This document shows, one piece after another, positions 3,637 to 54,612 of a stretch of 64,000 nt of DNA. The DNA is from a virus, in the IMG/VR virus record IMGVR_UViG_3300034418_012856, positions 19,838 through 83,837 of that record; one strand, written 5' to 3'. The notes below the pieces were generated by a model. The model was given only the letters and a program-made list of their open reading frames with translations. It did no database searches and was not told the DNA's origin. Position numbers and translations under genes: made by a program. Within the stretch, counting starts at the first letter, position 1; each line of letters opens with the position of its first letter.

Positions 3637-3699
3637 TTTTTTCTAAAATTTTGACTTTAGTTGGAATATATAATGGAAAAGTTTCAATATCGCAGGTGT

Positions 3700-3730: not shown

Positions 3731-6466
3731 ATGGACTTACTTAATCAATTAAAAACTCTTAGGGAAACAACCACTAACCCTGAAGTTAAATCTATTTGCG
3801 AATCTCATATTAATAAAATACAAAACGGGGAGAACGTAAATGAATCCGCAGTCCTTGAATCTGTTGATCAGGTTGTGAAGGAAAGCGAAGGCGAAAGCGC
3901 TGTGAATCCTATGGAGATGATCAGACAACAAGAAATTGAAAGATCTAAATCTGCAGCTCAGAGATTAATGGAATCTTGGGGAGGCATTGGATCATCAACT
4001 TCAAGAAATTCCGGATCCTATGTAGATGCTGAAAAGAAAGAGATCGATAACGAAGTTAATAACATCTCCGAAAGCTTAAAAGAAGTTGCTGAGAAAGACC
4101 CAGCAGCAAAGGCTTTTGTTGACTCACAAACAGTAAATAACTTAGGAGTTTATGAGTCTATTCTTTCTCTTAAGGGCACTGGAATTTACGAGCACCCTAA
4201 CGTTAAGATCCTTTGTGAAAAATATACACACCTACTGAAAAGCAATAACGTCCCTGAATATCTAGTTGCTGAATCTTTTGTACAGGAACTTCAGAACTTT
4301 AACTGGGACAATAAGATTAAGTCTGCAGTAGAATCTATTAGTGAAAAAGTCCAATCACACCTACCTGAAATTGAGGTATCTAAAGCTCTTTACTCGATCG
4401 AGAAAAGCGCTGGTGCTGATTTCTACTCACCAGTAACTGAGTCTTTGAATAAGTGGTTAATTTCAGAGAACAAATCAGTTGCTCTACTTTCTAAGGAGCT
4501 ATCAAGGTGGTCTTTTAACCCAACGGTTAGAAATCTTGTTAATTCACTTTCTTTGATGGAGTCATCAGAAAGTAAATTAAGTATTCCAGTTAATAACGGA
4601 AATTCTTCAGTTAAGAAAGTTTACTCTCCGGTACATGTAAGTGGCGGTAAAACCGTGTTTACCATTGGTAATAATGTCTTTGAAGGAAACTCTGAAGGAA
4701 TTAAGAGGCTTAATAGAGCAGAATTTGAAGCTCTTCCAGCATCTTTTAGATCTTTATTAGAATCTTTCTATTCTCCTATGGTTAAGATTAACGAAAATGG
4801 TCTTAGCTTCTATGTTGGAAACAGCAGCTTTAAGCTTGTTGAAGAAAACGATTCAGTTTCTATCTACTCGAAAGAAACAAAGATCAACTTCAGTGACCTT
4901 AATCAACTTGCTAAGCAAGTAGCTTTGGAGATTTCTGGTAGCTTAGGAGTTAATGAAGCTAAAGCGGTTTCAGATCTTATTAATTTATATGAGAATTTCG
5001 AAAATATCGTTGAGTTGGATTTTGCTAAGAGATTGGAATCAAAGGTATTTGAAGGTGTATCTGTAAACCTTATTAAATGGAACTCAAACCTTTACCTTAA
5101 CAGGATAAACGAGGGAATGAATGAGAATTCTCTATTTAAGGTTAACGGATCACAAGCTACCAACATGGTTAAGGATTTGATGAAGTACGACATCTCTGAA
5201 GGATTAACAGAATTTTTGGATGGCGAGAACAGAATCAAGTCTATTATGCTTAACGATAGAAAGCAAATCATTGATAACATTTCTATTGTCGAGAATGAAA
5301 TCAATAAGATTTCACATGCAATGGCTACAAACCCTCTTTACGAAAACTCAAAAGAAATGCACAGAGCCAAGCACATGCTTGAGCAAGAGCTTTCTTCATT
5401 GAGGAAAAAATGGGCGGCTGTTAACGAGGAGATCGAAAAGATTGAGTCAACTGCAACAGAGGTAAACGACTTAAACGAGGACGAGAAATTTACTGTAGGC
5501 GACTACGTGAAAGTAAAAGAGTCTGGTAATACTGGTAAGGTAATTTCAGTCGATAGCACTTCTGGATCTTATACAGTTCTTATGGACAACGGAAGAACTG
5601 GTGATTTCAGAATGGACGAGATCGTTGATATCGAAGAGGCATTAAAATCTGCTGGTGAAGAAAACCAAGAAGCAGACGAGACTCAAGAAGAAATCAAGGA
5701 GCAAGAAATGGCAGTAGCTCCTGAAAAACAAACTGAATCTGCAAAAGATAAAACTCCTGCTGCTACACTTAAGGCTAATACTTCTGCAGCTCCTTCTGCT
5801 AAGGATCAAGAAGATGCTGGTAAAAAAGACATCGAAAAGGAAGATCATGCTAATTTAGAGGAAGCTCCAGAAGGTAGCGAGAAGGAAACCAAATATGACA
5901 TAAAGTTAAAAGATTCTTTGGTTGACAAAATGGGATACAACGTGAATGAAAATTCTGAAGACGTTGAGTCTACTGAATCTGAAATGGCTGAGGCTCCTGC
6001 TGACGGTAACACTGAGTTATCCGAAAGAGACGTTGAAAACACGGATCAAAACCTAGCAGAAGCACCAGGTGGAAGAGATCATGCAGATTACGATGTAAAA
6101 GCTGCTCATGCAGAGGAGAATAATCCTGACATGGTTAAAACAGACCCTGAAATGGCTTCAGCTCCTGGTGATGGCACAGATAAAGAAATGCATCACGAGG
6201 TTGGTAAAGAAATGGGATACAATCTTGATGAAGCCAACGACGTTGAAAAGACAGATCAACAACTTGCAGTAGCACCAGGTGGTGAGCACAAAGCAGAATA
6301 TGATGTTGAAGTTGCTAAAGCTGAAAAGGCAGTAGCGGATGTCATGAAGACAAACCAAGAATTGGCTGAAGCTCCTGCAGCAGGAACTGAAGCTGAAACT
6401 GATGTTGAGGTAAACCCAGAAATGGGATATAACATTGACGAAAGCGAAGAGTCAAAAAAAAACTAA
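3731..6466 (+). CDS. Large head- or virion-associated protein with KOW-like domain and AP-repeat tail
   Basis: 911 residues, taking the ATG at 3731 (MDLLNQLKTL) rather than the in-frame GTG at 3698, which overlaps the promoter. The first 560 residues are helical and not recognised. A small beta module at about 586-636 (FTVGDYVKVKESGNTGKVIS...YTVLMDNGR) resembles a KOW/SH3-like barrel. The C-terminal 230 residues are acidic repeats: [ML]-A-x-A-P occurs about six times and MGYN-x-x-E three times, as in MAEAPADG, LAEAPGGR and MASAPGDG. Many L/V-x-E sites suit cleavage by the prohead protease, so an internal head protein is plausible. It ends at a run of nine A, discussed separately. Confidence 0.65.
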   Translation: MDLLNQLKTLRETTTNPEVKSICESHINKIQNGENVNESAVLESVDQVVKESEGESAVNPMEMIRQQEIERSKSAAQRLMESWGGIGSSTSRNSGSYVDAEKKEIDNEVNNISESLKEVAEKDPAAKAFVDSQTVNNLGVYESILSLKGTGIYEHPNVKILCEKYTHLLKSNNVPEYLVAESFVQELQNFNWDNKIKSAVESISEKVQSHLPEIEVSKALYSIEKSAGADFYSPVTESLNKWLISENKSVALLSKELSRWSFNPTVRNLVNSLSLMESSESKLSIPVNNGNSSVKKVYSPVHVSGGKTVFTIGNNVFEGNSEGIKRLNRAEFEALPASFRSLLESFYSPMVKINENGLSFYVGNSSFKLVEENDSVSIYSKETKINFSDLNQLAKQVALEISGSLGVNEAKAVSDLINLYENFENIVELDFAKRLESKVFEGVSVNLIKWNSNLYLNRINEGMNENSLFKVNGSQATNMVKDLMKYDISEGLTEFLDGENRIKSIMLNDRKQIIDNISIVENEINKISHAMATNPLYENSKEMHRAKHMLEQELSSLRKKWAAVNEEIEKIESTATEVNDLNEDEKFTVGDYVKVKESGNTGKVISVDSTSGSYTVLMDNGRTGDFRMDEIVDIEEALKSAGEENQEADETQEEIKEQEMAVAPEKQTESAKDKTPAATLKANTSAAPSAKDQEDAGKKDIEKEDHANLEEAPEGSEKETKYDIKLKDSLVDKMGYNVNENSEDVESTESEMAEAPADGNTELSERDVENTDQNLAEAPGGRDHADYDVKAAHAEENNPDMVKTDPEMASAPGDGTDKEMHHEVGKEMGYNLDEANDVEKTDQQLAVAPGGEHKAEYDVEVAKAEKAVADVMKTNQELAEAPAAGTEAETDVEVNPEMGYNIDESEESKKN

Positions 6467-8179: not shown

Positions 8180-9808
8180 ATGGCCGGATTTAACGAAACA
8201 CCAGAAGGGAACCCGATATTCCAAAGGATTAGAGAGTCTGTAAAGTCTCTCAGCAATTTTGGTATGAGGTATGGTGATATGGTCATTAAAAATTCACAGG
8301 CCATTGGATCGATAGAAGCTGATTTTATGAAAAAGCAATCTATCGATGATGAGAGCTTGCTTTATTCCCTCGGTAGACAAGACACGACCACAAGACAATT
8401 TATCAGCTACTATGATAAGGATTACGCAGGAAAGAGAGATTATCTTAGGAAGTTTGCTCTGAATCCTGAGATAGAGTACATCTTGGATACTGTCTGTGAC
8501 GAAGCGATAACTTTTGATTCATACAACTTCTTTGCATATCCAGCATTTTTAAATCTTACCGATGTAAAGGATAAGATAAAAAACCGTCTGGACGAGAATT
8601 ATAAGAATTTGTATGACATGTTCGGCTTCGGCGATGATATCAGCGGGTGGCAATACTTTAGACAGCTAATGGTCGATGGCTTTCTTGCCTTTGAAATAGT
8701 TTATGATGACAAAGGTAAGAAGATTATTGGATTTAAGGAATTAGATGCAACTACTCTAATGCCATCTGTTGAAAAGCAGCCTGATGGTACTTATTTGAGT
8801 GTTTGGTATCAATACCCAAAGGATATCAATAAGAGGAGGATGCTATATGACTCCCAGGTGATTTACATATCATTTGCTAAGGGAAACACAGTTTCTAGGA
8901 TTAGCTATGTCGAAAGACTTATAAGGCCCTACAACATTCTTAGGATAATCGAGTACACTAGGGTAATATGGTCGGTTATGAACGCATCGTTCAGAATGAA
9001 AATGACTGTACCGATTGGATCGAGATCTCCACAGAAGTCTATGCAAACCTTGGGTGAGCTTATGAGTATCTATAAGGAAGATATTAGGTTCAATGATGAG
9101 AGTGGGGAGTTAACAGTAGATGGCAGACCTAAGATACAGTTTTATAAGAATTATCTAATGCCTTCTGGTGTTAATGGAACACCAACGATAGAACCTATTA
9201 ATAATGCTGGCCCAAACTTAAACGATCCCCAGCCTCTTGCTTATTTCTACGATAAGCTAGTTCAGGAATCTAAAATTCCTTTTTCTAGGTTCCAAGGTCC
9301 TGATGGTGGATCTATAGGAAACTATTCGAATGGTGCAGAAGGATTGGATAAAGAGGAAATAAGGTTTGGTAAGTTTATTAGTAGGCTTAGATCTATCTTC
9401 CAGGATCTTTTGGTTAAGCCACTTTGGATTCAAATGTGTAAGGATTTTCCGGAGTTGGAGAAGGATTACTTATTTAAGAGTCAACTGGGGTTGGAATATG
9501 TTTCTGATAATCCATTCAGGGTTAATCAAGAGATAGAAACCATGCTTAAAAAGAAAGAGCAAATTGATGGTATGTATGCTCTTACCGATGATAGCGGTGA
9601 GCCTTTCTTTTCATTGGCTTATCTAATTGAGTCTCATTTGGGAATGACTGAAGATGATATAAAGGCAAATAAGGAAGCTATCAAGAAAAGGAAAGAGGAG
9701 GAAAAAAAGAAAGCTGACGAAGAGGCTAAATCTTCGGAGGAAGAACCCGCAGAGGAAGCTCCAGAAGAATCTCCGGAGGAAACCCCGGAAGAACCCCCAC
9801 AAGAATAA
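8180..9808 (+). CDS. gp20: Portal protein, copy 1 (T4 gp20-like)
   Basis: 542 residues, close to T4 gp20 (524). The diagnostic C-terminal portion reads YFYDKLVQESKIPFSRF...GLDKEEIRFGKFISRLRSIFQDLLVKPL, matching the gp20 pattern of a helix, PxSR, E-x-x-F-x-KFI-x-x-L and a long helix. Upstream are YIDEYRK-like FISYYDKDYAGKRDYLRKFALNPEI and a DxAI element (CDEAI). Portal forms the dodecameric ring through which DNA enters and leaves the head. The last 45 residues are a Glu/Pro/Lys-rich disordered tail (EEPAEEAPEE) that differs from copy 2. The next gene is a full-length paralogue starting 10 nt after this stop. Confidence 0.88.
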   Translation: MAGFNETPEGNPIFQRIRESVKSLSNFGMRYGDMVIKNSQAIGSIEADFMKKQSIDDESLLYSLGRQDTTTRQFISYYDKDYAGKRDYLRKFALNPEIEYILDTVCDEAITFDSYNFFAYPAFLNLTDVKDKIKNRLDENYKNLYDMFGFGDDISGWQYFRQLMVDGFLAFEIVYDDKGKKIIGFKELDATTLMPSVEKQPDGTYLSVWYQYPKDINKRRMLYDSQVIYISFAKGNTVSRISYVERLIRPYNILRIIEYTRVIWSVMNASFRMKMTVPIGSRSPQKSMQTLGELMSIYKEDIRFNDESGELTVDGRPKIQFYKNYLMPSGVNGTPTIEPINNAGPNLNDPQPLAYFYDKLVQESKIPFSRFQGPDGGSIGNYSNGAEGLDKEEIRFGKFISRLRSIFQDLLVKPLWIQMCKDFPELEKDYLFKSQLGLEYVSDNPFRVNQEIETMLKKKEQIDGMYALTDDSGEPFFSLAYLIESHLGMTEDDIKANKEAIKKRKEEEKKKADEEAKSSEEEPAEEAPEESPEETPEEPPQE

Positions 9809-9817
9809 TAATATAGA

Positions 9818-11422
9818 ATGGCAGGTTTTTTAGATTATGTAGCAGAAAGATCCTTCTTGGGTAACCTGTATAAGAATTTATCCAAGGTTGGAAGGTTTGG
9901 AATGGAATACGAAGATATGGTAATTCGTAATTCCCAAGCTGTTGGTGCTACTGAATCTAACTTTTTCAACGAACAGGGAAGTGGATTTACTGAAAACAAC
10001 GCATTTTATTGGACCCTTGGATATCAAGATACGAAGGTTAGAAAATATATTGCCTACTTCGACAAGGACTACATGGGTAAAAGAGACTTCCTTAGGAAAT
10101 TCTCTTTGAATGGCGAAATTGATTTTATCCTGGATACACTTACTGATGATGCTATCAATTACGATGACAAAAATTTCTTTAGTTATCCGTCTTTAGCTAA
10201 CATTGATCTAAAGCCTAATGTGCTTGATAAGGTAAACGAGACATATCAGAATTTGTATATGCTGTTTGGCTTTCAGCAAAGCATATTAGCTTGGCAATAT
10301 TTTAAGCAGTTTTTGATTGATGGGTTTTTGGCTTTTGAGATTGTTTATTCTACTGATGGCAAGAAAATAGTTGGATTTAAAGAATTAGATCCAACCTCCC
10401 TTCAACCCGCTACAGAACAGCAGCCAAATGGTGAATTCCAACAGATTTGGATACAATACCCAGAGGATAATAAAATGACAAGGAAGCTCAGAAGTGAGCA
10501 GATCATTTATCTTTCGTATGCTAAAGGAAATACAATTTCTAGGGTAAGCTATGTGGAGAGACTTATAAGGTCTTATAACATTCTAAGAATCATGGAAAAC
10601 ACCAGGGTTATTTGGAATGTGATGAATGCTTCTTACAGACTTAAGTTTGTAATCCCTGTTGGTTCACAGTCTCAGCAAAAAGCGATGCAAACCCTTGGAC
10701 AGCTAATGTCTATCTATAAAGAGGAAATGGAAATTAATGATTCCTCGGGTGAACTAACAGTAAACGGTAGACCTAAGGTTCAGTTTTATAAGAATTATCT
10801 TTTCCCTGAGAAAGATGGACAATCCCCACAGATTGAAACCCTTGATCCCAATGGACCAGATTTCAATGTTATGGATAATGTTATTTACTTCTATAACAAG
10901 CTTAAACTGGATTCGAAAATACCTTATGCAAGGTTTGCTTTCCGAAATGGTACCCCGGCTAACTATCAAATAAGTATAGATCAGCTAGAAAGGGATGAAA
11001 TTAGGTTTGAGAAATTCTTAACAAGACTAAGATCGATCTTCCAAGAAATATTGGTCAAACCTCTTTACATACAAATGTGTTTGGACTTCCCAGAATTAGC
11101 TAAGGATAGATCATTCAAAGCAAATCTGGGCCTAAGTTATGTAAGAGAAAACCTTTTCGAGGAGTTTATTCAATTGCAAAACTATACAAAACGCACCCAG
11201 TTTATAAATGACCTTGGTGAAATGAAGCAAAAGATTGGCGAGGAAGAGGAATCTTATTTTGACAAAGAATTCCTGATTAAAAGGTATCTCGGTTTAACTA
11301 TGGACGAATATAAGAAGAACGAGAAATATAAGGAAGCTGAAGCTAAGCTTGCTGAGGAAAAAGCTAAGGAAGCCGGATCTGAGGGCGGAGAGGAAGGCGG
11401 AGGCGAGTCATTCACCCTATAA
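9818..11422 (+). CDS. gp20: Portal protein, copy 2 (T4 gp20-like paralogue)
   Basis: 534 residues, clearly homologous to copy 1 over its whole length, about half identical by eye. Shared blocks include FGMxYxDMVIxNSQA, DKDYxGKRDxLRKF, WQYFxQ, DGFLAFEIVY, YVERLIR and DEIRFxKFxxRLRSIFQ. Differences cluster at the N-terminal 15 residues, around 55-65, in the loop after KIP (FAFRNGTPANYQ) and in the tail, which is Gly/Glu-rich here. Both copies look intact, with no stops or frameshifts. They could form a mixed ring or be alternative portals. The heptose kinase follows after 10 nt. Confidence 0.86.
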   Translation: MAGFLDYVAERSFLGNLYKNLSKVGRFGMEYEDMVIRNSQAVGATESNFFNEQGSGFTENNAFYWTLGYQDTKVRKYIAYFDKDYMGKRDFLRKFSLNGEIDFILDTLTDDAINYDDKNFFSYPSLANIDLKPNVLDKVNETYQNLYMLFGFQQSILAWQYFKQFLIDGFLAFEIVYSTDGKKIVGFKELDPTSLQPATEQQPNGEFQQIWIQYPEDNKMTRKLRSEQIIYLSYAKGNTISRVSYVERLIRSYNILRIMENTRVIWNVMNASYRLKFVIPVGSQSQQKAMQTLGQLMSIYKEEMEINDSSGELTVNGRPKVQFYKNYLFPEKDGQSPQIETLDPNGPDFNVMDNVIYFYNKLKLDSKIPYARFAFRNGTPANYQISIDQLERDEIRFEKFLTRLRSIFQEILVKPLYIQMCLDFPELAKDRSFKANLGLSYVRENLFEEFIQLQNYTKRTQFINDLGEMKQKIGEEEESYFDKEFLIKRYLGLTMDEYKKNEKYKEAEAKLAEEKAKEAGSEGGEEGGGESFTL

Positions 11423-24686: not shown

Positions 24687-24694
24687 GATATATA
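24687..24694 (+). promoter_or_regulatory. Putative late promoter GATATATA (head operon)
   Basis: The octamer lies 34 nt before the protease-scaffold ATG. Its context GATATATAAAGTT is repeated almost exactly at 25347 inside that gene. Confidence 0.72.
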
Positions 24695-24720
24695 AAGTTA
24701 AATAATAGTAAAGTCAAGAA

Positions 24721-26727
24721 ATGAACGAGTCTTTATTGAATGAAAACCTCCTTTTTATTCTTGAAAAACAAGATAATAATCTTGATGTTTCAAAGGATGG
24801 TGCTGAAAATGGCTATGTACTGAAAGGTATAGCAGCTCAATTTGGCAAGGAGAACAATAACAATAGAATATACGAGGAAGGTGAATACCTGCCTCACCTT
24901 GAATATCTAAAGGATAAGATAGGACAGAAGAGATTGGTTGGTGAATTAGATCACCCCGAAAAATTCGATGTCTCTCTTAAAAACATTTCTCACGTTGTTG
25001 AGGATCTAGTTTATGATAAAGACGGAAGAGTATTAAACATTAAAGTTCGTTTGCTTGACACTCCAGCAGGACAAATTGCTAAAAAGCTTGTTGATGCTGG
25101 TATACCTCTTTCTATTTCATCTAGAGCAGCTGGAAATGTTGGTCCGGATAAGAAAGTCCAGATCAAAAAAATCTTTACATATGATCTAGTAGCTGATCCT
25201 GGTTTTCAGGACGCACAGCTCGAGAGGGTTTACGAAAGCGCTGGTTTTGATGCTTTTGAATTTGAAGAAAGATCAAAAAAGTCTGTAGTAAACAACTTAG
25301 AGTGTGTAAACGAATCGCTAGGGCTAGAAAATGAATCTAGTGTAAAGATATATAAAGTTGAAAATAGCGAAGAATTCGAAAAAATCCTTAATCAAGACAA
25401 AAATAAATCCAACATTATGGAGGCCAACAAAGAATATGTTACTGCTGACGAGCTTAACAAGTATTCTATCTTTTTGAAAAATAAGATGGATGAGCTGGAA
25501 ACGCAGATTTCTGAAATGAAACAACAAGAAGCTCAGGTATCTGAGAGTGAAACTGACAGTGTAGACTGTAAAGCTCTGGAAGAAAGAGTTGCTAAACTTG
25601 AAAAGTATTCAGAATATCTTGCTGAAAACCTAGAGAGTGCTATTAAGTACGGTGAGTACCTAGCAGAAAATCTAGATAGCAGCATTACTTATTCGAAGTA
25701 TTTAGCTGAAAACCTAGATAAGACTATTTCTTATTCTAAGTATTTGGCTGAAAATGTTGATAAGGGTATTTCATATTCAGAGTACGTGGCTGAAAATGTT
25801 GATAAGGCAATCGATTATTCTAAGTATCTTGCTGAAAAGCTAGATGATGGAATTCAATACACAGAGTATGTTGCTGAGAATCTTGATAAGAACATCGCTT
25901 ATTCAGAATATCTAGCAGAGAATGTTGATAAGAACATTGCTTACTCTGAATATTTGGCTGAGAATCTTGATAAAGGAATTTCTTATTCTGAATACCTTGC
26001 AGAAAACCTTGATAAAGGTATTGCTTATTCTGAGTACATCGCAGAAAAGCTTGATCAAGGTATCAACTATACAGAGTACCTTGCAGAAAACCTAAACAAA
26101 GGAATTGCTTACTCTGACTATTTGGCTGAAAAGCTAAATGGAAACATAGCTCAAACTGAAGCTATTCACGAAAGTGCTAAAACTCAAGTTTCTCCTTCTC
26201 TAAATGAGAACGCAAGAGAAACTGCTGAAAGCGCTTCACAAACTGAATTGGTCGAATCAGGATTTGCTGGAGATTACGAAAATCTCGGAAGCAAGATTGA
26301 TTCTCTAATTGAATCGGTCAAGACACAAAAGACTGAGGAAAACATAAACGAGGCTAATACGAAAGTACAGCCAACTGCTCAAACACAAAAAGCAGATGAG
26401 GCAATCAACGAAGCCGAAGAAACTGTGGTAGAATCATCAGGTCACAAATTTATTGATGAAATGCCAGAAGATTATGCTCCGATTTGGGAGTCACTAAATG
26501 AAAGTCAAAAGCAATCAATCATTGCACAATCAGCTTTCTATAATTTAGAGACAAACTATCAGATCAAGAATTTCTGGTCAACTCGTCAGCTTGGTGCTAA
26601 GCCAGTAGGTTTACAGAAACTTCAAGAAAGCCAAGAAACACCAGAGCCTAAGACGGCTTCAAACCCCCAGGGGTACTCAAATGATTACCTTAATTGGGTC
26701 GCTAAGTCGCTCGAAGGTAAGTTTTAA
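24721..26727 (+). CDS. gp21: Prohead protease (gp21-like) fused to scaffold (gp22-like)
   Basis: 668 residues; T4 has separate gp21 (212) and gp22 (269). Residues 1-185 form the S80-type protease: NNNNRIYEEGEY, GELDHPEKF (H78), LSISSRAAGN (S133/S134) and YDLVADPGF (D155/D159), the His/Ser catalytic set of T4-type prohead proteases. Residues 233-670 look like scaffold: a coiled coil, 13 tandem 14-residue repeats (295-476) and an acidic Asn/Glu/Thr-rich tail with many INE/LNE sites. Each repeat contains L-A-E, itself a predicted cleavage site. An internal promoter-like site and in-frame ATG (M233) could yield scaffold alone. The capsid gene follows after 23 nt. Confidence 0.85.
   Translation: MNESLLNENLLFILEKQDNNLDVSKDGAENGYVLKGIAAQFGKENNNNRIYEEGEYLPHLEYLKDKIGQKRLVGELDHPEKFDVSLKNISHVVEDLVYDKDGRVLNIKVRLLDTPAGQIAKKLVDAGIPLSISSRAAGNVGPDKKVQIKKIFTYDLVADPGFQDAQLERVYESAGFDAFEFEERSKKSVVNNLECVNESLGLENESSVKIYKVENSEEFEKILNQDKNKSNIMEANKEYVTADELNKYSIFLKNKMDELETQISEMKQQEAQVSESETDSVDCKALEERVAKLEKYSEYLAENLESAIKYGEYLAENLDSSITYSKYLAENLDKTISYSKYLAENVDKGISYSEYVAENVDKAIDYSKYLAEKLDDGIQYTEYVAENLDKNIAYSEYLAENVDKNIAYSEYLAENLDKGISYSEYLAENLDKGIAYSEYIAEKLDQGINYTEYLAENLNKGIAYSDYLAEKLNGNIAQTEAIHESAKTQVSPSLNENARETAESASQTELVESGFAGDYENLGSKIDSLIESVKTQKTEENINEANTKVQPTAQTQKADEAINEAEETVVESSGHKFIDEMPEDYAPIWESLNESQKQSIIAQSAFYNLETNYQIKNFWSTRQLGAKPVGLQKLQESQETPEPKTASNPQGYSNDYLNWVAKSLEGKF
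25347..25419 (+). promoter_or_regulatory. Possible internal late promoter and scaffold start
   Basis: GATATATAAAGTT at 25347-25359 duplicates the promoter context at 24687-24699. Seventy nt downstream an in-frame ATG (25417-25419, M233, MEANKEYVTADEL) follows an A-rich leader (caaaaataaatccaacatt). The site falls between the protease domain and the coiled-coil scaffold. It would produce a 436-residue free scaffold, analogous to the nested Nu3 scaffold of lambda gene C. Confidence 0.5.
25603..26148 (+). repeat. 13 tandem 42-bp coding repeats (14-residue scaffold unit)
   Basis: Thirteen in-frame units follow the pattern x-Y-[SGT]-[EKD]-Y-[LVI]-A-E-[NK]-[LV]-[DEN]-x-x-I, for example AYSEYLAENLDKGI, without interruption. 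Nucleotide copies have drifted at third positions, so selection acts on the protein. The 14-residue period differs from the coiled-coil heptad multiple only by being exactly two heptads, fitting a continuous coiled coil with Tyr and Leu/Ile at repeated core positions. Confidence 0.95.
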
Positions 26728-26750: not shown

Positions 26751-28472
26751 ATGAAACTAATCAACGAAGCAGAAATCTTCGAAACCTGGTCTCCTATCAT
26801 CGAGCAGAAGGCTGGAATTCAAGATGCTGAGAAAAAGGGATGGTTGAGCAAGTACTGCCACTACCATTCATTAAACGAGTCTGCTGGAGCTTACCAGTCT
26901 CTAGCAACTGTAAACGGTATGGGTGCCGTACAACCACCCGCATACCCAGGTGGGTATAACTCAACTGGTGCAGCAGTAGGTACGCAAGCTAACTCAGCTT
27001 TCTATAACTCTGCTAACCAAGGTTCAGGAGATAAGTTTCCTTCACTTCTTCCTTTGGCAATTCAGGTTGCTGCGAAGACTGTTGGATTCGATATCGTTCC
27101 TGTAATTCCTATGTCAGGTCCTACTGGCGTACTTTCTTACCTAGATTACGTATACTCAGGTGGTAAAATCAGCCCTAACGCTGCTGGTTCTACTGCTGCA
27201 GATGCTCTTGCAACTGCTCCATCGATGATCAAAGTACAGATCACTTCTTACACCGCAGGATATCCTGATAGTTTTGCAGTAGGTACTACTTACTACATCA
27301 CTAAGGCTACTTCAGCTGGTGCTTACATCACCACTGAATTCGTTGGTCTATCAAGAATTGATGGTTACCCAATCTTCAGAATCACAGGCCTAACCGCAGG
27401 TGAAACTGTCTCTGACGTTCTTGATGGTGGTGCAGCTAAAGTTGGTACTACAGTAAACGGTACTGAAGCTGGTACTACAACTGCAAGAGCAGAATTGGTT
27501 AAAGCTCTTGAGGATCACATCCAAGGATTCTCTGGTGCTGGTTTCAACAACGACCAAGACTGGCAAGGACCATTCGTAGATGGTACTAAGACTTACAACC
27601 CAATGCTAAGAGGTGTTGGTGAGAGCACTTACTACCAATCAATGGGTCTTTCAACGTTCACTAAGTTCGTTGAAGCTGATACTTTCCAAGTAGCTGCTTC
27701 AGTAACTACTGAGCAAATCCAAGACTTGAACAAGCAGTTTGGTATCGACGTTATCTCAATGATCGAAAATGCATTGGTTAATGAAGTATCACAAGCTATT
27801 AACAAGCACATCCTTTCTAGAGCATTCGCACTTGGTTGGTCTAACCACAGCGAGTTCTTAACTACAGAAGGTCAGAACTTGAACCTAAACCTCGTTATCG
27901 GTGGTACTGCAGGTTCTTACACTATTCCTTCTTACGTAGGTAAGTCTGACTCGGGTATCGCTATTGCTTCTGTTGCAGGCCCTGCATCAGGAACTTACGA
28001 GAACTTGTCAACTCTACAGAGAAGACTATTCTCTAGAATCTTAGCTTCTGCTAACGTAGTAGCTAACAGAGGAAGAAGAGGTCCTGCTAACTTCATCGTT
28101 ACTAACGCTAACGTTGCAAGTGCATTGCAAGACATCTCTCAGTTCACTTTTGCTCCTTTCTCTAACACTCTTACTCAAAACAACGGAACACTTTACCCAG
28201 TAGGTTCGCTTGCAGGTATGACCGTTTATGTTGATCAGAACATGAAGTTCGGTGATAACAGAGTACTAGTTGGAAGAAAAGGTGGTGACGACGAACCAGG
28301 ACTTAAGTTCATGCCTTACATGATGGCTGAGTCTATCCAAACAATCTCTGAAGGTACAATGTCACCTAAGATTGCGGTTAAATCTCGTTACGCTCTAGTA
28401 GAAGCTGGTTTCCACCCAGAAACTATGTACTTCTGTTTCCACGTGAACGTTCCTGCTGGAGGTCTATCCTAA
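26751..28472 (+). CDS. gp23: Major capsid protein, T4 gp23-like
   Basis: 573 residues (T4: 521). gp23-like blocks are the N-terminal EIFETWSPIIEQK (T4 LLNKWKPLLEG), IDVISMIENALVNEVSQAINKHILSRA (split similarity to T4 LSGILATEIMLEINREVVDWI), RRGPANFIVTNANVASAL and GMTVYVDQNMKFGDNRVLVGRKGG. A predicted maturation cleavage lies after LNE (41-43), giving a mature protein starting SAGAYQS, comparable to the T4 cut after its E65. About 120 residues around 130-260 are Gly/Thr/Ala-rich and have no T4 counterpart known to me; they may be a surface insertion. Codon choice is more uniform than in neighbours, as expected for high expression. A strong terminator follows. Confidence 0.9.
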   Translation: MKLINEAEIFETWSPIIEQKAGIQDAEKKGWLSKYCHYHSLNESAGAYQSLATVNGMGAVQPPAYPGGYNSTGAAVGTQANSAFYNSANQGSGDKFPSLLPLAIQVAAKTVGFDIVPVIPMSGPTGVLSYLDYVYSGGKISPNAAGSTAADALATAPSMIKVQITSYTAGYPDSFAVGTTYYITKATSAGAYITTEFVGLSRIDGYPIFRITGLTAGETVSDVLDGGAAKVGTTVNGTEAGTTTARAELVKALEDHIQGFSGAGFNNDQDWQGPFVDGTKTYNPMLRGVGESTYYQSMGLSTFTKFVEADTFQVAASVTTEQIQDLNKQFGIDVISMIENALVNEVSQAINKHILSRAFALGWSNHSEFLTTEGQNLNLNLVIGGTAGSYTIPSYVGKSDSGIAIASVAGPASGTYENLSTLQRRLFSRILASANVVANRGRRGPANFIVTNANVASALQDISQFTFAPFSNTLTQNNGTLYPVGSLAGMTVYVDQNMKFGDNRVLVGRKGGDDEPGLKFMPYMMAESIQTISEGTMSPKIAVKSRYALVEAGFHPETMYFCFHVNVPAGGLS

Positions 28473-40249: not shown

Positions 40250-40924
40250 ATGGGATGGCTGAGTCGAATATTCAAGAAAAAGAAAATGGATCTTAAGGAA
40301 AAAACTTTAACAGAATTAAAGGAAGAATTATCCCAGGTTGACTTCCAGTGGATTAAAGGGGATAAGATGGGTAACGTTGAGAAGTTCAACGGGGTTACTC
40401 AGGACGAAGCTACTGGAATGACTTTTGTACAGTTTATTGGTGGTGGAAGGATTAACATTGAGCTTTTGGAGGAGTATTTAGAAACATTCCCTGCTTCTAA
40501 GGTTGATTATAATAATACCTCTGGCAATATTGATTTGACTCAACCGGATGTTCAGATGCAAAAGCAACAGGTTATTCAGGAGCCCACCGTTTCTAAGCCT
40601 GTTAGAAATACTGTTTCTGCCATTGAGCTTGAAGAATCACCGATATATAAACTATTGAAACAGCAGAATGAAAATTGGGTGAATGTGAACATTACTCTTA
40701 AGTTAAATCTGCCTTCAAAAAATTTATACAATGTTTTAATTAGCTCCTTTGATGGTGCTAATGAGGAGATAATTAATTATGTGACCGAAGGAGTTGATAT
40801 TGATGATATTAGAGGTGCTTTGGCAGAATCGATTACTTCTTATTATGGTGGAACTCAAAAATCAACTAGCCAAAGGATAAAGAAAAAGCAAGAAACCAAA
40901 ACGGCGGAAGAAGATGACGAATAA
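40250..40924 (+). CDS. Hypothetical protein
   Basis: 224 residues, unrecognised. A basic, possibly membrane-binding start (MGWLSRIFKKKK) is followed by a small domain (FNGVTQDEATGMTFVQFIGGGRINIE), a Gln-rich linker near 110-120 and a C-terminal helical region (WVNVNITLKLNLPSKNLYNVLISSF) ending in a Lys/Glu tail. It overlaps the NUDIX gene by 11 nt. An exact GATATATA at 40642 lies inside this gene but no start follows at the usual spacing. Confidence 0.5.
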   Translation: MGWLSRIFKKKKMDLKEKTLTELKEELSQVDFQWIKGDKMGNVEKFNGVTQDEATGMTFVQFIGGGRINIELLEEYLETFPASKVDYNNTSGNIDLTQPDVQMQKQQVIQEPTVSKPVRNTVSAIELEESPIYKLLKQQNENWVNVNITLKLNLPSKNLYNVLISSFDGANEEIINYVTEGVDIDDIRGALAESITSYYGGTQKSTSQRIKKKQETKTAEEDDE

Positions 40925-46242: not shown

Positions 46243-48507
46243 ATGGGAATTAGAGCTACAGATAAAAATAGGAATCTATTCCTCAAAGGATTTAAACTGT
46301 CCGATTCTGGAATGAACGAGGATCCAACTTACCTTGGATTTAAAATAGTTTTTGATCCAGGAATATTGCCTATTAACCCTGAATACGGATGGGCTCCAAG
46401 TCCTTTGTTGAGAGCACAAAATTACACTGAAGGGAATGGGGCTTCTTTTGCTTCATCTCTAGGAAATCCCTTTGGTCAACCTCAGTATGAAAGGAGACAG
46501 AGTGATGTAATCTATTATTCTGCTTATAACTATTTACTGGAAAGGGAAGCAAATTTCCCAGGACAAAACACTCAAAGGAGAGCTCAAGCTCTAAGACAGT
46601 TCCAGAAGCTTTTACAGGAGATAAACACCAATTCCCCTTGGTTTTTCCAATCTATTGATGGACTTGACCAGCTTGGTAAAATTGTTAATCGAGGCGGATG
46701 GCAAAACGAGGACGGAATGGATAATTTCAATCCTCAAAGAACTTCAGGAAGCACATTAACTGTAAATTGTTTGGAATCATTAAACCTCCGTATTTCTGCT
46801 TTAGCAGATCTGTATAATCAAGCTACCTTTGATTATGACAACATGAGGTATTTAGTCCCTAGAAATCTTAGAAAATTCACTATGTGGATCTTTGTTACAG
46901 AGATAAGGAATTTTTTTAAGACTAGTAGACTCACAGCATCGAGCACAGCATTGACAGCGTTGGATGATTTATCTTCTCTGTTGACCACAAATAGAAACCC
47001 AGGATCTTCTGTTGTTGACCAGGGAAATGGGCAATATAGTGTGGGCGGATTTAATATGGGTTCTGAAAACCCAAGCCCTGGTGGAGGTGGAATTGGAGGA
47101 GCGTTTAAGTCCTTTGTAAATAATGTATTTCAGGGATCTGGACTACAAAACGATGTTCAGGCTTTTACTAACCAACAAGACCAAAGCGGTATTAAACCCG
47201 TTATGATTTATGAGTGCCAGCAGTGCGAATTTGATTTTACTGAAAGTACACCAATTAAATCGACCATTGATATGGGATCAAGTACAGCAGATCCTGAAAA
47301 AAATGCTTTTAGAATTCACGTAGGTAAAGTCAGAACTAAAAACCAATATCCAAATATTAGGCAAGATAAGAAGCCTTTGGTATTAGCAGACGGATGGGAT
47401 CAAAATAGATCAAGTTACCAATTTTTAGGTGATGATACACTTTCACTAGAAAATCTATTAGGTCTGGGGCAGCAAGCTTTAACCAACGTGGTTTCTAACG
47501 CAGTATCGGATTTAGTGAACGAGGGTATTAATCAATTCATTGATCCAGCATTAAGTGGAATAGATCAATCATTGCTTGGGAATATTTATTCCTTCAATCC
47601 TTCTCAGTTGACTCAAATGACCAGCCAAAATGGGTCTTTTGGTTTTAATAATTTAGAGAACTTCCTTAACGGAGCTTCTGAAACTGGTATTGATAATATT
47701 TTCAAAGGGAATTTGCCAAACCCCCAAACTATGGGTGAGGGCGGACCTAGGGAAAGGGTCTATCCACCTGTTCCGCCAACTGATGTTTATGGTAAAGTAC
47801 CAGGTGAAGATTTGGGAGTTCCTGACAGAGTTTATCCTGGTGTTAATGCGGATGTTTACCAGAACGTTCCTGGTGAAGACTTAGGAGTTCCGGATAGGGT
47901 TTATCCTACAGTTAATGATGATGTTTACGAGAACGTTCCTGGAAGTGATCTAGGGGTTCCCGACAGGGTTTATGCGGATCCCTCGGGAGATGTTTACGAG
48001 AACGTTCCTGGAAGTGATCTAGGGGTTCCCGATAGGGTTTACGCGGATCCCTCGGGAGATGTTTATGATAATGTACCTGGTTCTGATCTGGGAGTACCTG
48101 ATAGGACATATCCCGAACCTGGTGGTGATGTTTATGCTAACGTCCCTGGTTCCGATCTTGGTGTTCCTGATAGGAATTACTCACCGAATATTAGTGATAA
48201 TGACGTTTACACAGACTCGAACTTTACCACTGATGCCCTAGGCAATTCTAGAGTTTATGGTGATAATTCGTTGGTTTCCTCCCGAGGGGAATTAAGATCT
48301 CCTGAAAATACTTTTACTGAACCACCAGGCCAAGTTTATTCCACACAGAGAAAAAACCCAACGTCCGGTGATATAGGAAATGTTTACCCCGTTACAAATG
48401 GTGATTTCATAATTGAAAGCCCCCTTAATTTGGGGAACTCTAAACCCGCTGATAAATACAATGTAAGTCTGGGTGATTATAACCCTGACGAATACGAAGA
48501 GCAATAA
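46243..48507 (+). CDS. Large tail/baseplate protein with six 23-residue repeats
   Basis: 754 residues. The first 510 residues are globular (RATDKNRNLFLKGFKLSD, YLVPRNLRKFTMWIFVTEIRNFF, MIYECQQCEFDFTES) and could be a hub-proximal structural protein. Residues 514-651 are six tandem 23-residue repeats built on DVY-x-NVPG-[ES]-DLGVPDR-x-Y. The final 100 residues are Asn/Asp/Ser/Pro-rich. The repeat region is probably an extended flexible arm reaching along the baseplate or holding partners. No T4 homologue recognised. Confidence 0.55.
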   Translation: MGIRATDKNRNLFLKGFKLSDSGMNEDPTYLGFKIVFDPGILPINPEYGWAPSPLLRAQNYTEGNGASFASSLGNPFGQPQYERRQSDVIYYSAYNYLLEREANFPGQNTQRRAQALRQFQKLLQEINTNSPWFFQSIDGLDQLGKIVNRGGWQNEDGMDNFNPQRTSGSTLTVNCLESLNLRISALADLYNQATFDYDNMRYLVPRNLRKFTMWIFVTEIRNFFKTSRLTASSTALTALDDLSSLLTTNRNPGSSVVDQGNGQYSVGGFNMGSENPSPGGGGIGGAFKSFVNNVFQGSGLQNDVQAFTNQQDQSGIKPVMIYECQQCEFDFTESTPIKSTIDMGSSTADPEKNAFRIHVGKVRTKNQYPNIRQDKKPLVLADGWDQNRSSYQFLGDDTLSLENLLGLGQQALTNVVSNAVSDLVNEGINQFIDPALSGIDQSLLGNIYSFNPSQLTQMTSQNGSFGFNNLENFLNGASETGIDNIFKGNLPNPQTMGEGGPRERVYPPVPPTDVYGKVPGEDLGVPDRVYPGVNADVYQNVPGEDLGVPDRVYPTVNDDVYENVPGSDLGVPDRVYADPSGDVYENVPGSDLGVPDRVYADPSGDVYDNVPGSDLGVPDRTYPEPGGDVYANVPGSDLGVPDRNYSPNISDNDVYTDSNFTTDALGNSRVYGDNSLVSSRGELRSPENTFTEPPGQVYSTQRKNPTSGDIGNVYPVTNGDFIIESPLNLGNSKPADKYNVSLGDYNPDEYEEQ
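47782..48195 (+). repeat. Six tandem 69-bp coding repeats
   Basis: Six uninterrupted in-frame copies of a 23-codon unit. Copies 3 and 4 are nearly identical in DNA (for example GACGTTT.ACGAGAACGTTCC and CCCTCGGGAGATG), while copies 1, 2, 5 and 6 have drifted. This points to recent expansion by unequal exchange or slippage in the middle of the array. Confidence 0.95.
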
Positions 48508-52058: not shown

Positions 52059-53225
52059 ATGAACACGCCAGAAAACACAGATCAAATCCAAGAGGAATTT
52101 AACTGGAACATTCCTAACCGTAGAACAATCAACAGAGACATAGAGGTTTTTGATGATTCGAAAGTTTACTGTAGGGAAGATTATGCACAGTCTCTCTATT
52201 ACCAAATGGCTGAAAGCCTAAAGGGAGTAAACTCTTCTAAGGATTTGAAAACTGGAAATGCTTATGATAGCACCATTACCACTTTAACTGATAAACATGC
52301 GATTGCACAAACTTATGAGGGACAATCAATTTATATTGATTTGGTAAAAGAAAGAAAGGATGCAGATAAGCTTGGTATAACTGGAATTGACTTCGAGATT
52401 GGCTCTGAAATTCAGACCGTTGTTAGAAATGTCAATGGAACCTATTATGGATCTGTCATTGACTGTTTCATTGAAACCACTAAGCAAGAATTCTTTGAAC
52501 AGATTAAAAAAGAATCCTTGGCTTATGAAGCTAGGATTGAATCCATTAATAATGGAGGATACATTGTGGACGTCCAGGGAATTAAATGTTTCCTTCCAGG
52601 TTCACTTGCAGCTGCTAATAAAATTACTGATTTTGAGGCTTACCTTGGTAAGAAGATCTATGTCATGATCGATGGTTATGTACAAAAGAAAGACATTTTT
52701 GTAGTTTCTTATAAGAAGTATCTGAACAAGATTATGGATGAAAAAATCCAAGAACTTGATCTTACTAAGAAATATAAAGGGCATGTTACTGGAACATCAA
52801 GCTTCGGAGTTTTTGTTGAGTGGGAGGATATCTACACTGGCCTTATTCACAAAACTGAATTTGACAACCAAAGGGTTGAAGGATTTACCGCAGGCGATGA
52901 AATAGAATTTTATATCAAGGAGGTTAAGGACGATAATAGATTGACACTAACCTTTGGCGAGCCTGTTGATAAAACCCTGAAAATTTATGATCTTAAGAAA
53001 GACCTTGAAGATGGATCTGCTCCAATATCTAATGCTAAAGTAAAGCATAAAAGGAAGAATGGAGCTTTGGTTGAATTGCCAGAATTTGGTTTGATGGCAA
53101 TGATCCCGCAGGGTCGTTTGGGAAAAGACCACAAAGGACTTAAAACCGGAGACCAAATCCTTGTAACTGTTTACGAGGTTGACCAGGTAATGGGAAAAAT
53201 ATTTGTAGAACCACTCAATGAGTAA
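52059..53225 (+). CDS. S1-domain RNA-binding protein (ribosomal protein S1-like)
   Basis: 388 residues with three S1 (OB-fold) domains. Domain A (about 155-227): ARIESINNGGYIVDVQGIKCFLPGS. Domain B (about 238-300): KYKGHVTGTSSFGVFVEWE...GLIHKTEF...AGDEIEFYIKEV..RLTLTF, the best match. Domain C (about 326-386): AKVKHKRKNGALVELPEFGLMAMIPQG. Residues 80-130 may be a further degenerate domain. Three or more S1 repeats are typical of ribosomal protein S1, which bridges mRNA leaders to the ribosome. No S1 partner such as a nuclease domain is attached. It has its own late promoter and overlaps the next gene. Confidence 0.85.
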   Translation: MNTPENTDQIQEEFNWNIPNRRTINRDIEVFDDSKVYCREDYAQSLYYQMAESLKGVNSSKDLKTGNAYDSTITTLTDKHAIAQTYEGQSIYIDLVKERKDADKLGITGIDFEIGSEIQTVVRNVNGTYYGSVIDCFIETTKQEFFEQIKKESLAYEARIESINNGGYIVDVQGIKCFLPGSLAAANKITDFEAYLGKKIYVMIDGYVQKKDIFVVSYKKYLNKIMDEKIQELDLTKKYKGHVTGTSSFGVFVEWEDIYTGLIHKTEFDNQRVEGFTAGDEIEFYIKEVKDDNRLTLTFGEPVDKTLKIYDLKKDLEDGSAPISNAKVKHKRKNGALVELPEFGLMAMIPQGRLGKDHKGLKTGDQILVTVYEVDQVMGKIFVEPLNE

Positions 53226-54612
53226 TACCCACTTTGATAAAAGACAGTTACTTTCCTCTGCCTTATTAGGCTTTGAGTTTGAATTCTTCTCTGAAATGGT
53301 CAGGGGAAGGATAACTGAATCTTTGTCCAAACTCTTGGGTAAAAAGGTAATTCTTTCAAATAAGTATCATTCTAAAATTCCAGTTACTAGTGAGGTTTTC
53401 AAGCTAGAGCCAGATTATTCGGGAGGAGGAAAGATGAATGAGCTTGTAACTGGGCCTCTTCCATATGCTGAAGCTATCCCTGTTCTGATCAAGGTTCTAA
53501 AATGGATTGACGAAAACGGGTGGACTACCGATAAATGTGCCTTCCAATTTTCTCTTAGCTTTGACAAATTTGATAGATCTGTTAAAAGAATGGAAGAACT
53601 TGATAAGTTACAATTTATCCTTGGTATTGACGAGGGGCTCATATATTCTAAGTTTGGTAACAGGAAAAATAACGTATATTCAAGATCTATCAAAAAGGTT
53701 GTACCAAGAAATAGATTTTCAATTCTTGAGAACGTTTCACAGATTGACCCAAAGCTATTTAGAATTCCTGACGAGAAATATTATGGCGCTAATTTTACAA
53801 AGGTACCAAAGGGATACATCGAAATAAGATATCTTGGTGGTAAAGACTATCAGAAAAAGATAACTGCAATTCGTGATGTAATAGATTATGTGGTTCTTTA
53901 TACCTATGATATTCTTTCGGGGAGAAGGACATATACTAAAACTGACCTTGAGAACCTTAAATCCATGATGAAGGAATATTCAAAGGTTGTAAGAAGTTTT
54001 TCTGATCCAGAAGCTTTCTTTATGAATTTCCCAGATTTTCACCTTTTGGTGGATTTGAAGGGCTATCTGGAAAATATTAAGACCTATTTCCCGTACATCA
54101 GGGAGAAGGTCTTTGATATCATAGTGGAGGGTAATGTAAAGAACGGTTTCTTCAATTATGATACTACTAATGGAAGATTCCAGCTTAAGGATGCCAAAAT
54201 TAAAAGTGCAACCTATCTGGACAATTTGGATCTTATAAATTGTAAGGTTAGATCTTCTAAGCTTGACAATTGTAGAATATTCAGCTGTGACATTAGGAAT
54301 AGTGAAATCTACAACTCCGAGGTTTTAAATGGTAATAAGGTTTCTAAATCTAAAATAAAGGACACAAGTGCCGATTTTGGAAACAAGCTTATTGAATGCT
54401 ATATAGATTCCCCTGAAAAAATGATTGATTGCGAAATCACTGGCGGTGTTTTGAGAAAGGGTGATATCGGAAGGAATGCCGATGTGAGTAAAGAAACCGA
54501 AAAGGCCAAAGACTTTAATGAAATTAGAAAGGGAAGATTTATAACTGACTCGAGATTGAAAAATCTTAACGACCCTATTTCTAGGATAAAGTTTAAAAAT
54601 CAGAATTACTAA
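53218..54612 (+). CDS. Amidoligase-like protein with C-terminal solenoid repeats
   Basis: 464 residues, ATG overlapping the S1 gene stop. The N-terminal third resembles the amidoligase family (glutamine-synthetase-like COOH-NH2 ligases): GFEFEFFSE (E-x-E start), ELVTGPLPYAEAIPVLIKVLKWI and FQFSLSFD, then IEIRYLGG (R-x-x-x-G). Residues about 330-395 form a right-handed solenoid like pentapeptide repeats (LDNLDLINCKVRSSKLDNC, IFSCDIRNSEIYNSEVLNG). Such enzymes link amino groups to carboxylates, for example on peptides or cell wall. The fusion is unusual. The family match is by pattern only. Confidence 0.5.
   Translation: MSNTHFDKRQLLSSALLGFEFEFFSEMVRGRITESLSKLLGKKVILSNKYHSKIPVTSEVFKLEPDYSGGGKMNELVTGPLPYAEAIPVLIKVLKWIDENGWTTDKCAFQFSLSFDKFDRSVKRMEELDKLQFILGIDEGLIYSKFGNRKNNVYSRSIKKVVPRNRFSILENVSQIDPKLFRIPDEKYYGANFTKVPKGYIEIRYLGGKDYQKKITAIRDVIDYVVLYTYDILSGRRTYTKTDLENLKSMMKEYSKVVRSFSDPEAFFMNFPDFHLLVDLKGYLENIKTYFPYIREKVFDIIVEGNVKNGFFNYDTTNGRFQLKDAKIKSATYLDNLDLINCKVRSSKLDNCRIFSCDIRNSEIYNSEVLNGNKVSKSKIKDTSADFGNKLIECYIDSPEKMIDCEITGGVLRKGDIGRNADVSKETEKAKDFNEIRKGRFITDSRLKNLNDPISRIKFKNQNY

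What the first reader, a model, noticed from the sequence alone, without database searches (positions are those of the whole stretch)
25603..26148. Scaffold made of 13 two-heptad repeats, each carrying its own protease site, fused to the protease
Seen: protease motifs at 78 and 133, then 13 uninterrupted 14-residue repeats with L-A-E in almost all copies. Known: T4-type prohead protease cuts after [LI]-x-E and destroys the scaffold, but T4 scaffold and protease are separate genes. Inference: the fused protein assembles as a coiled coil and is diced into small peptides at regular intervals, a built-in self-destruct core. I do not know of a described phage with this layout.
Basis: partly seen in the sequence, partly recalled or inferred. 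Interest (0 to 1): 0.88.

Follow-up and report, generated by a model that had tools for sequence, protein, structure and literature searches.

The report
Phage scaffold nested inside its protease
A giant-phage gene makes a protein-cutting enzyme joined to a long helical building scaffold studded with likely cut sites, and a hidden second start inside the gene probably also makes the scaffold alone, as herpesviruses and phage lambda do.

Summary
ORF 24721-26727 (668 aa) is a T4-type (S77) prohead protease fused to a scaffold region with 13 uninterrupted 14-residue repeats; 13/13 carry [LIV]-A-E, 11/13 [LI]-A-E. It lies 23 nt before a gp23-type capsid gene. About 85 relatives, including the 634-735 kb Mahaphages, share the layout.

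Cleavage at the repeats is plausible, not shown. Glu-7 is the best-conserved repeat position (93% of 971 units; Asp 1%). The homologous capsid maturation site is always [LIM]-x-E, followed mostly by S, N or D, so LAE|N fits. The non-repetitive C-terminal tail is independently enriched in this motif (9 seen, 0.9 expected).

"Fused and self-destructing" is not new in kind: T4 gp22 is also full of [LI]xE and diced; single protease/scaffold genes are known (P2, lambda, herpes UL26). Fourteen residues is not a clean two-heptad zipper.

An in-frame ATG at 25417 is kept in 84 of 85 relatives, beside the gene's strongest synonymous-site constraint (two independent clades); in the near clade a phage promoter-like motif lies 67-76 nt upstream. 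Most scaffold is therefore probably made protease-free.

New variant of a known kind.

The parts
24687..24695 (+). GATATATAA, promoter-like motif 34 nt before the fused gene's start
   Evidence: 8 copies on + strand, 0 on - strand; 1.08 expected by shuffling
24721..26727 (+). Fused prohead protease-scaffold gene, 668 aa
   Evidence: ORF; orthologues in about 85 distinct relatives
24790..25143 (+). Peptidase S77 (T4 gp21-type) protease domain, residues 24-141 by Pfam; invariant H78 (24952-24954) and S133/S134 (25117-25122)
   Evidence: Pfam 1.9e-7, PHROG 207 1.2e-33; invariant residues
25347..25355 (+). Internal GATATATAA promoter-like motif inside the protease ORF, 70 nt before the internal ATG
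   Evidence: kept at 67-76 nt in the near clade, inside a synonymous-constrained patch, codons 203-217
25390..25422 (+). Codons 224-234, strongest synonymous-site constraint of the gene, A-rich stretch leading into the internal ATG
   Evidence: observed/expected synonymous differences 0.13-0.18 vs mean 0.98, sd 0.20
25417..26727 (+). Predicted nested scaffold-only gene, 436 aa, starting at the conserved internal ATG (codon 233)
   Evidence: Met kept in 84 of 85 fused relatives
25606..26151 (+). 13 x 14-residue helical repeats, residues 296-477, consensus YSEYLAENLDKxIx with [LIV]AE in every copy
   Evidence: helix prediction
26152..26724 (+). Scaffold C-terminal region, residues 478-668, rich in [LIM]xE[SANG] (9 vs 0.93 expected), with a conserved domain near residues 576-625
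26751..28472 (+). gp23-type major capsid protein, substrate of the protease
   Evidence: Pfam Gp23 7.7e-42
26871..26879 (+). Predicted capsid maturation site L41-N42-E43|S44
   Evidence: position is [LIM]xE in all 72 relatives parsed

Best explanation
This is the head-core gene of a Mahaphage-related, T4-type giant phage, in which the equivalents of T4 gene 21 (protease) and gene 22 (scaffold) form one reading frame while gene 22 kept its own start. Two products are expected: a 668-aa protease-scaffold, and a 436-aa protease-free scaffold from the internal ATG at 25417, in this clade probably from its own transcript. Both share the 13-repeat helical rod and the C-terminal domain and would co-assemble into the prohead core, so the fusion seeds the core with covalently anchored protease. 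After the shell closes, the protease cuts after [LIM]-x-E: in the capsid N-terminus, in the scaffold's C-terminal tail, and probably in most repeats, breaking the rod into peptides small enough to leave. Shown by sequence: fusion, repeats, conserved internal ATG and upstream constraint, motif match and enrichment. Inferred: the two products and their ratio, co-assembly, cleavage in the repeats, peptide exit.
For: Fusion and order; the capsid gene starts 23 nt downstream. T4 has genes 21-22-23 in the same order, with TATAAATA 35 nt before the gene 22 ATG, overlapping the end of gene 21: the same layout before fusion. Internal start: Met just before the conserved scaffold N-terminus in 84/85 fused relatives although the linker before it varies freely; strongest synonymous constraint of the gene there, seen separately in the near clade (z=-4.8) and the Mahaphage clade (z=-3.8). 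Promoter-like motif strand-biased 8:0, none of 100 shuffles reaching 8, 25-39 nt before several gene starts and 67-76 nt before the internal ATG in the near clade. Cleavage: capsid site [LIM]xE in all 72 parsed relatives, P1' S 26, N 25, D 18; 971 repeat units with E7 93%, [LIM]xE 76%; tail enrichment 9 vs 0.93, motif also enriched in the capsid protein, control motifs at expectation in the fused protein. Stoichiometry precedents: T4 gp22 about 580 vs gp21 about 55 copies (PMC9958956); HSV VP21 about 10% of scaffold (PMC12474303).
Against: No expression, proteomic or biochemical data exist for any member with the array. The repeat's Glu could be kept for helix packing or salt bridges: Y1, Y4 and A6 are nearly as conserved. 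16% of units are V-x-E and about 21% are followed by Lys, neither seen at the capsid site. The promoter-like motif is clear only in the near clade; other clades keep the ATG but mostly not that motif. L127 lacks the internal Met, and PTm1 has none at the junction. The full-length structure model is poor (pLDDT 44).
Confidence: 0.72

Rival explanations
1. Structural-rod reading: the repeats are a helical rod or length ruler, and A-E is kept for helix packing and salt bridges. The protease cuts only the unstructured tail, linker and capsid sites, and the rod leaves as a few large pieces.
For: Y1, Y4 and A6 are about as conserved as E7 in the near family; P3 drifts among L, I and V like a packing residue (16% V) while the capsid site never uses V; copy number is nearly constant, 13 or 14, in near relatives.
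Against: E7 is Glu in 93% and Asp in only 1% of units, whereas the acidic positions 3 and 10 drift among E, D, N and K, as expected if a Glu-specific protease must be served. T4 gp22, helical and equally rich in [LI]xE, is degraded to small peptides.
Confidence: 0.25
2. One reading: only the fused protein is made, protease and scaffold 1:1, and the internal Met has no role.
For: One open frame without interruption; one relative (L127) and PTm1 lack a Met at the junction.
Against: Met kept in 84/85 relatives behind a hypervariable linker, with peak synonymous constraint upstream of it in two clades and a promoter-like motif in one.
Confidence: 0.12
3. The constraint around codon 233 serves another element, such as an RNA structure, an RNA-processing site or a regulatory site, rather than a start codon.
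For: Synonymous constraint alone does not identify the element; in the third clade the signal is weak.
Against: The Met itself and the N-terminal scaffold motif right after it are conserved in register across clades whose upstream DNA differs; the layout matches T4 gene 22's promoter and start.
Confidence: 0.08

Closest known systems
Phage T4 genes 21 (protease) and 22 (scaffold)
   Same: Protease family S77, gene order protease-scaffold-gp23 capsid, scaffold rich in [LI]xE, TATAAATA 35 nt before the scaffold start, cleavage after [LI]-x-E.
   Different: In T4 the two are separate genes; gp22 has many [LI]xE sites but no regular 14-residue array.
Herpesvirus UL26 / UL26.5
   Same: Protease-scaffold fusion plus a nested in-frame gene making the scaffold alone with the same C-terminus (PMC12474303).
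   Different: Different cleavage scheme: release of the protease from the scaffold and trimming of the scaffold tail, with no repeat array carrying cut sites.
Phage lambda C / Nu3 and phage P2 gpO
   Same: Protease and scaffold encoded by a single gene; lambda C and Nu3 overlap (PMC8508860, citing Shaw and Murialdo 1980).
   Different: Different protease family and no gp23-type capsid (own knowledge); no 14-residue array.
Tenacibaculum phage PTm1, Prevotella Lak phages, Chryseobacterium phage MA9V-2
   Same: S77 protease fused to a scaffold with a homologous C-terminal domain; PTm1 is annotated 'prohead core scaffolding protein and protease'.
   Different: No 14-residue array; PTm1 has no Met at the junction; MA9V-2 is far longer (1,207 aa) with many N-E-S type motifs.
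Mahaphage genomes LR745206 and LR756500-LR756504 (Al-Shayeb et al. 2020, PMC7162821)
   Same: Orthologous gene with the array (degenerate in LR756500) and the internal Met.
   Different: 37-41% identical overall; capsid site INE|N, MNE|N, IHE|N or LYE|N; the near clade's internal promoter-like motif is not kept. The records carry no annotation.

Membership tests
T4-type prohead core protease (Pfam S77) | Domain match and invariant His/Ser active-site motifs | tested here: met
   Pfam PF03420 E=1.9e-7, above its cut-off; PHROG 207 1.2e-33; H78, S133/S134 invariant
T4-type prohead core protease (Pfam S77) | Cuts capsid and core proteins after [LI]-x-E | not testable with these tools
   Only the motif could be tested: conserved at the capsid site in 72/72 parsed relatives, enriched in capsid protein and scaffold tail
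T4 gp22-type scaffold | Sits between protease and gp23-type capsid gene, helical, degraded by the protease | tested here: inconclusive
   Position and helix prediction fit; degradation not testable
T4 gp22-type scaffold | Sequence homology to gp22 | tested here: inconclusive
   The C-terminal HMM hits gp22 only weakly (E=0.008 in a 9-sequence set)
Nested protease/scaffold gene pair (lambda C/Nu3, herpes UL26/UL26.5) | One reading frame holding protease then scaffold | tested here: met
Nested protease/scaffold gene pair (lambda C/Nu3, herpes UL26/UL26.5) | Conserved in-frame internal start at the junction | tested here: met
   84 of 85 fused relatives; synonymous constraint in two clades
Nested protease/scaffold gene pair (lambda C/Nu3, herpes UL26/UL26.5) | Own promoter or transcript for the inner gene | tested here: inconclusive
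   Phage promoter-like motif 67-76 nt upstream in the near clade; not clear in other clades; no transcript data
Nested protease/scaffold gene pair (lambda C/Nu3, herpes UL26/UL26.5) | Two protein products seen | not testable with these tools
   Needs expression or proteomics
Canonical heptad coiled coil | Apolar a and d positions in every heptad | tested here: not met
   Consensus YSEYLAENLDKxIx leaves half of the a/d positions small or polar in the best registers (read); a long helix itself is supported

The most novel reading that the evidence does not exclude
A T4-type giant-phage lineage has arrived at the herpesvirus-like arrangement, a protease-scaffold gene with a scaffold-only gene nested inside under its own promoter, and has made the scaffold a regularly phased self-destruct rod in which nearly every 14-residue repeat is cut by the attached protease, the number of repeats also setting the length of the core rod.
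Probability: 0.35. Interest if true: 0.75.

Novelty: new variant of a known kind. Interest (0 to 1): 0.58.

Why it matters
How the largest phages build heads for 600-700 kb genomes is essentially unstudied; the phages with this array are known only from metagenomes. This gives a concrete, testable model of their head core: one gene, two products, a helical scaffold with built-in cut sites. It would add a T4-type, S77-protease case to the short list of nested protease/scaffold genes (lambda, herpesviruses) and shows a plausible route to it: fusion of neighbouring genes while the inner promoter and start are kept. The regular array also offers a clean substrate for asking how a prohead protease takes apart a helical core.

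Tried and rejected
Chance or assembly artefact: rejected (many independent contigs, diverged copies). Recent slippage array: rejected (copies correspond one-to-one across phages, number stable). Relation to plant LTI65 repeats (Pfam PF23399 E=1.6e-9): rejected, a 17-residue match only. Full-length AF2 with 20 aligned sequences: too poor to use (pLDDT 44); only the repeat region folded alone gave a confident helix, and the hairpin break in that model is not trusted. Fold search was not run, because long helices match anything. Motif enrichment within the repeats is not independent evidence (13 copies of one unit), so the non-repetitive tail and the capsid site were used instead. Matching between the residue after the repeat's Glu and the capsid's across clades: no clear pattern by eye. 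A three-way fusion with the capsid protein in MA9V-2: rejected, its capsid gene is separate. A scaffold-only alignment failed, and the comparison with T4 gp21 used a wrong frame; neither is relied on. Paper searches found no description of this fusion or nested start in Mahaphages, but most subscription papers are not in that library.

Full report
WHAT WAS CLAIMED.

The ORF is 24721-26727 on the + strand, 668 aa. All 13 units have [LIV]-A-E: 10 LAE, 2 VAE, 1 IAE. The following residue is Asn in 10 and Lys in 3. Copies share only 68% DNA identity on average and use several codons at L5, A6 and E7, so the array is old and maintained. The N-terminal part is a Peptidase S77 (T4 gp21) domain (Pfam E=1.9e-7; PHROG 207 'head maturation protease' E=1.2e-33) with invariant H78 and S133/S134. 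The only solved-structure sequence match is T4 gp21 itself, weak (5jbl, E=0.099). The next gene, 23 nt downstream, is a gp23-type capsid protein (Pfam E=7.7e-42).

WHO HAS IT. The window is part of an 83.8-kb virus contig. Some 45 IMG/VR loci carry the gene at 38-100% identity; with a wider search there were 93 distinct sequences to compare. Among phage records the array is found only in six unannotated huge-phage records (LR745206, LR756500-LR756504). Those of 634, 636, 642 and 735 kb match in size the largest Mahaphages of Al-Shayeb et al. 2020, predicted to infect Bacteroidetes; Lak phages are placed in the same clade (PMC7162821). Near relatives have 13 or 14 copies with copy-by-copy correspondence; across the family the automatic count is mostly 8-16. 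Tenacibaculum phage PTm1, Lak and Chryseobacterium phage MA9V-2 have the fusion and a homologous C-terminal domain but no array. Phages Munch and PA5oct, like T4, have separate protease and scaffold genes.

ARE THE REPEATS CUT SITES? T4 gp21 cuts after [LI]-x-E (PMC9026906); gp22 is degraded to small peptides and 65 residues are removed from gp23 (PMC9958956). The matching position in the window's capsid protein is SLNE|SAG. In every relative parsed (72) it is [LIM]-x-E: P3 is Leu 50, Ile 17, Met 5 and never Val; P1' is Ser 26, Asn 25, Asp 18. LAE|N in the repeats therefore fits the clade's own site. In an ORF-by-ORF shuffle test, [LIM]xE[SANG] is enriched in the fused protein (20 vs 4.0), the capsid protein (6 vs 1.3), a 922-aa ORF at 3698 (20 vs 5.5) and ORF 53218 (5 vs 1.2); in the fused protein the control motifs [LIM]xD[SANG] and [LIM]xxE[SANG] are at expectation. 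Because the 13 repeats are copies of one unit, the independent evidence is the non-repetitive tail, residues 478-668: 9 seen, 0.93 expected. Across 971 repeat units E7 is the most conserved position (93%; Asp only 1%) and 76% are [LIM]xE. Against: 16% are VxE, about 21% are followed by Lys, and Tyr1, Tyr4 and Ala6 are nearly as conserved, as helix packing would require. T4's own gp22 has 16 [LI]xE against 5.75 expected, so a scaffold full of cut sites is already the T4 condition; what is special here is the regular spacing. In a different giant phage, SPN3US, long propeptides are also removed by multiple cleavages (PMC10052503). Cleavage in the repeats is plausible, not shown.

IS IT A COILED COIL? 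AlphaFold2 on the full protein was poor (pLDDT 44), with nearly all of the array as helix. The repeat region alone gave pLDDT 88 and two long helices. A long helix is likely. The consensus does not fit a clean heptad pattern, so 'two-heptad' describes length only.

Codon 233 (ATG at 25417) sits between protease and scaffold. A Met here, a few residues before a conserved scaffold N-terminus (such as E-[FY]-V-T-x-[ED]-[DE]-[LF]-N-x-Y), is present in 84 of 85 fused relatives, although the linker before it varies freely in length and sequence. An automatic pattern found 80; L132, L072, L052 and L100 were read by eye; L127 lacks it. PTm1, Lak, MA9V-2 and MaF61 are not in this count. In the near clade (17 sequences) the strongest synonymous-site constraint of the whole gene lies over codons 224-234, with observed/expected synonymous differences of 0.13-0.18 against a mean of 0.98 (sd 0.20). 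A separate analysis finds the strongest windows just upstream of the ATG in the near clade (z=-4.8) and again in the Mahaphage clade (z=-3.8); the third clade shows only a weak signal.

A second constrained patch, codons 203-217, holds GATATATAA at 25347. This 9-mer occurs 8 times on the + strand and never on the - strand of the window, against 1.08 expected in total. GATATATA copies lie 25-39 nt before several gene starts, including the fused gene's own, 24687. The internal copy is 70 nt upstream of the internal ATG and is kept at 67-76 nt in the near clade. In T4, TATAAATA, the late-promoter consensus (own knowledge), lies 35 nt before the gene 22 ATG and overlaps the end of gene 21. The simplest history is that genes 21 and 22 became one frame while gene 22 kept its promoter and start.

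HOW IT MOST LIKELY WORKS. Two products: a 668-aa protease-scaffold and a 436-aa scaffold. Herpes UL26/UL26.5 does this, the longer gene supplying about 10% of the scaffold (PMC12474303); T4 has about 580 gp22 to 55 gp21 (PMC9958956). A shared helical rod and C-terminus would let the two co-assemble, anchoring protease in the core; maturation then trims the capsid protein and breaks up the core. Product ratio, co-assembly, cleavage in the repeats and peptide exit are inferred.

NOVELTY. Protease and scaffold in one gene are known in P2 and lambda (PMC8508860) and in herpesviruses. T4-type scaffold dicing is known. New here, as far as these searches go, are the nested arrangement in an S77/gp23 giant-phage lineage and the regular 14-residue, motif-bearing array. 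I file it as a new variant of a known kind.

Noticed in passing
8180-9808 and 9818-11422: Two adjacent portal-protein genes (both PHROG 213, E about 1e-57), 51% identical to each other; phages normally have one portal gene.
   Followed up: partly
3731-6466: 912-aa protein (ORF listed from 3698; likely start 3731) with 20 [LIM]xE[SANG] motifs vs 5.5 expected and a repetitive C-terminal part with LAEAP/MAEAP units; looks like a second prohead-core substrate of the protease.
   Followed up: partly
whole window, e.g. 17550, 21108, 24687, 36102, 38757: GATATATA[AG] is a strand-biased promoter-like motif 25-39 nt before many gene starts; probably the phage's late promoter.
   Followed up: partly
40642: Another GATATATAA copy inside an ORF (40250-40924), a possible second internal promoter or nested start.
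   Followed up: no
47803-48198: 69-bp tandem repeats in the 754-aa ORF 46243-48507, i.e. about 23-residue protein repeats.
   Followed up: no
63099-63999: Several overlapping tandem repeat arrays at the window end, periods 12-57 bp.
   Followed up: no
L059 80-3703 and L060 93-4307: Chryseobacterium phage MA9V-2 and Flavobacterium phage MaF61 have protease-scaffold type proteins of 1,207 and 1,404 aa with many N-E-[SAGN] motifs, far larger than T4's.
   Followed up: partly
L127: The one family member without the internal Met; its linker reads ...TSTPEAVKVEDFNKYS, with GTT codons rather than an alternative start.
   Followed up: partly
53218-54612: Weak Amidoligase_2 match (below its cut-off) with 5 [LIM]xE[SANG] motifs vs 1.2 expected.
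   Followed up: no
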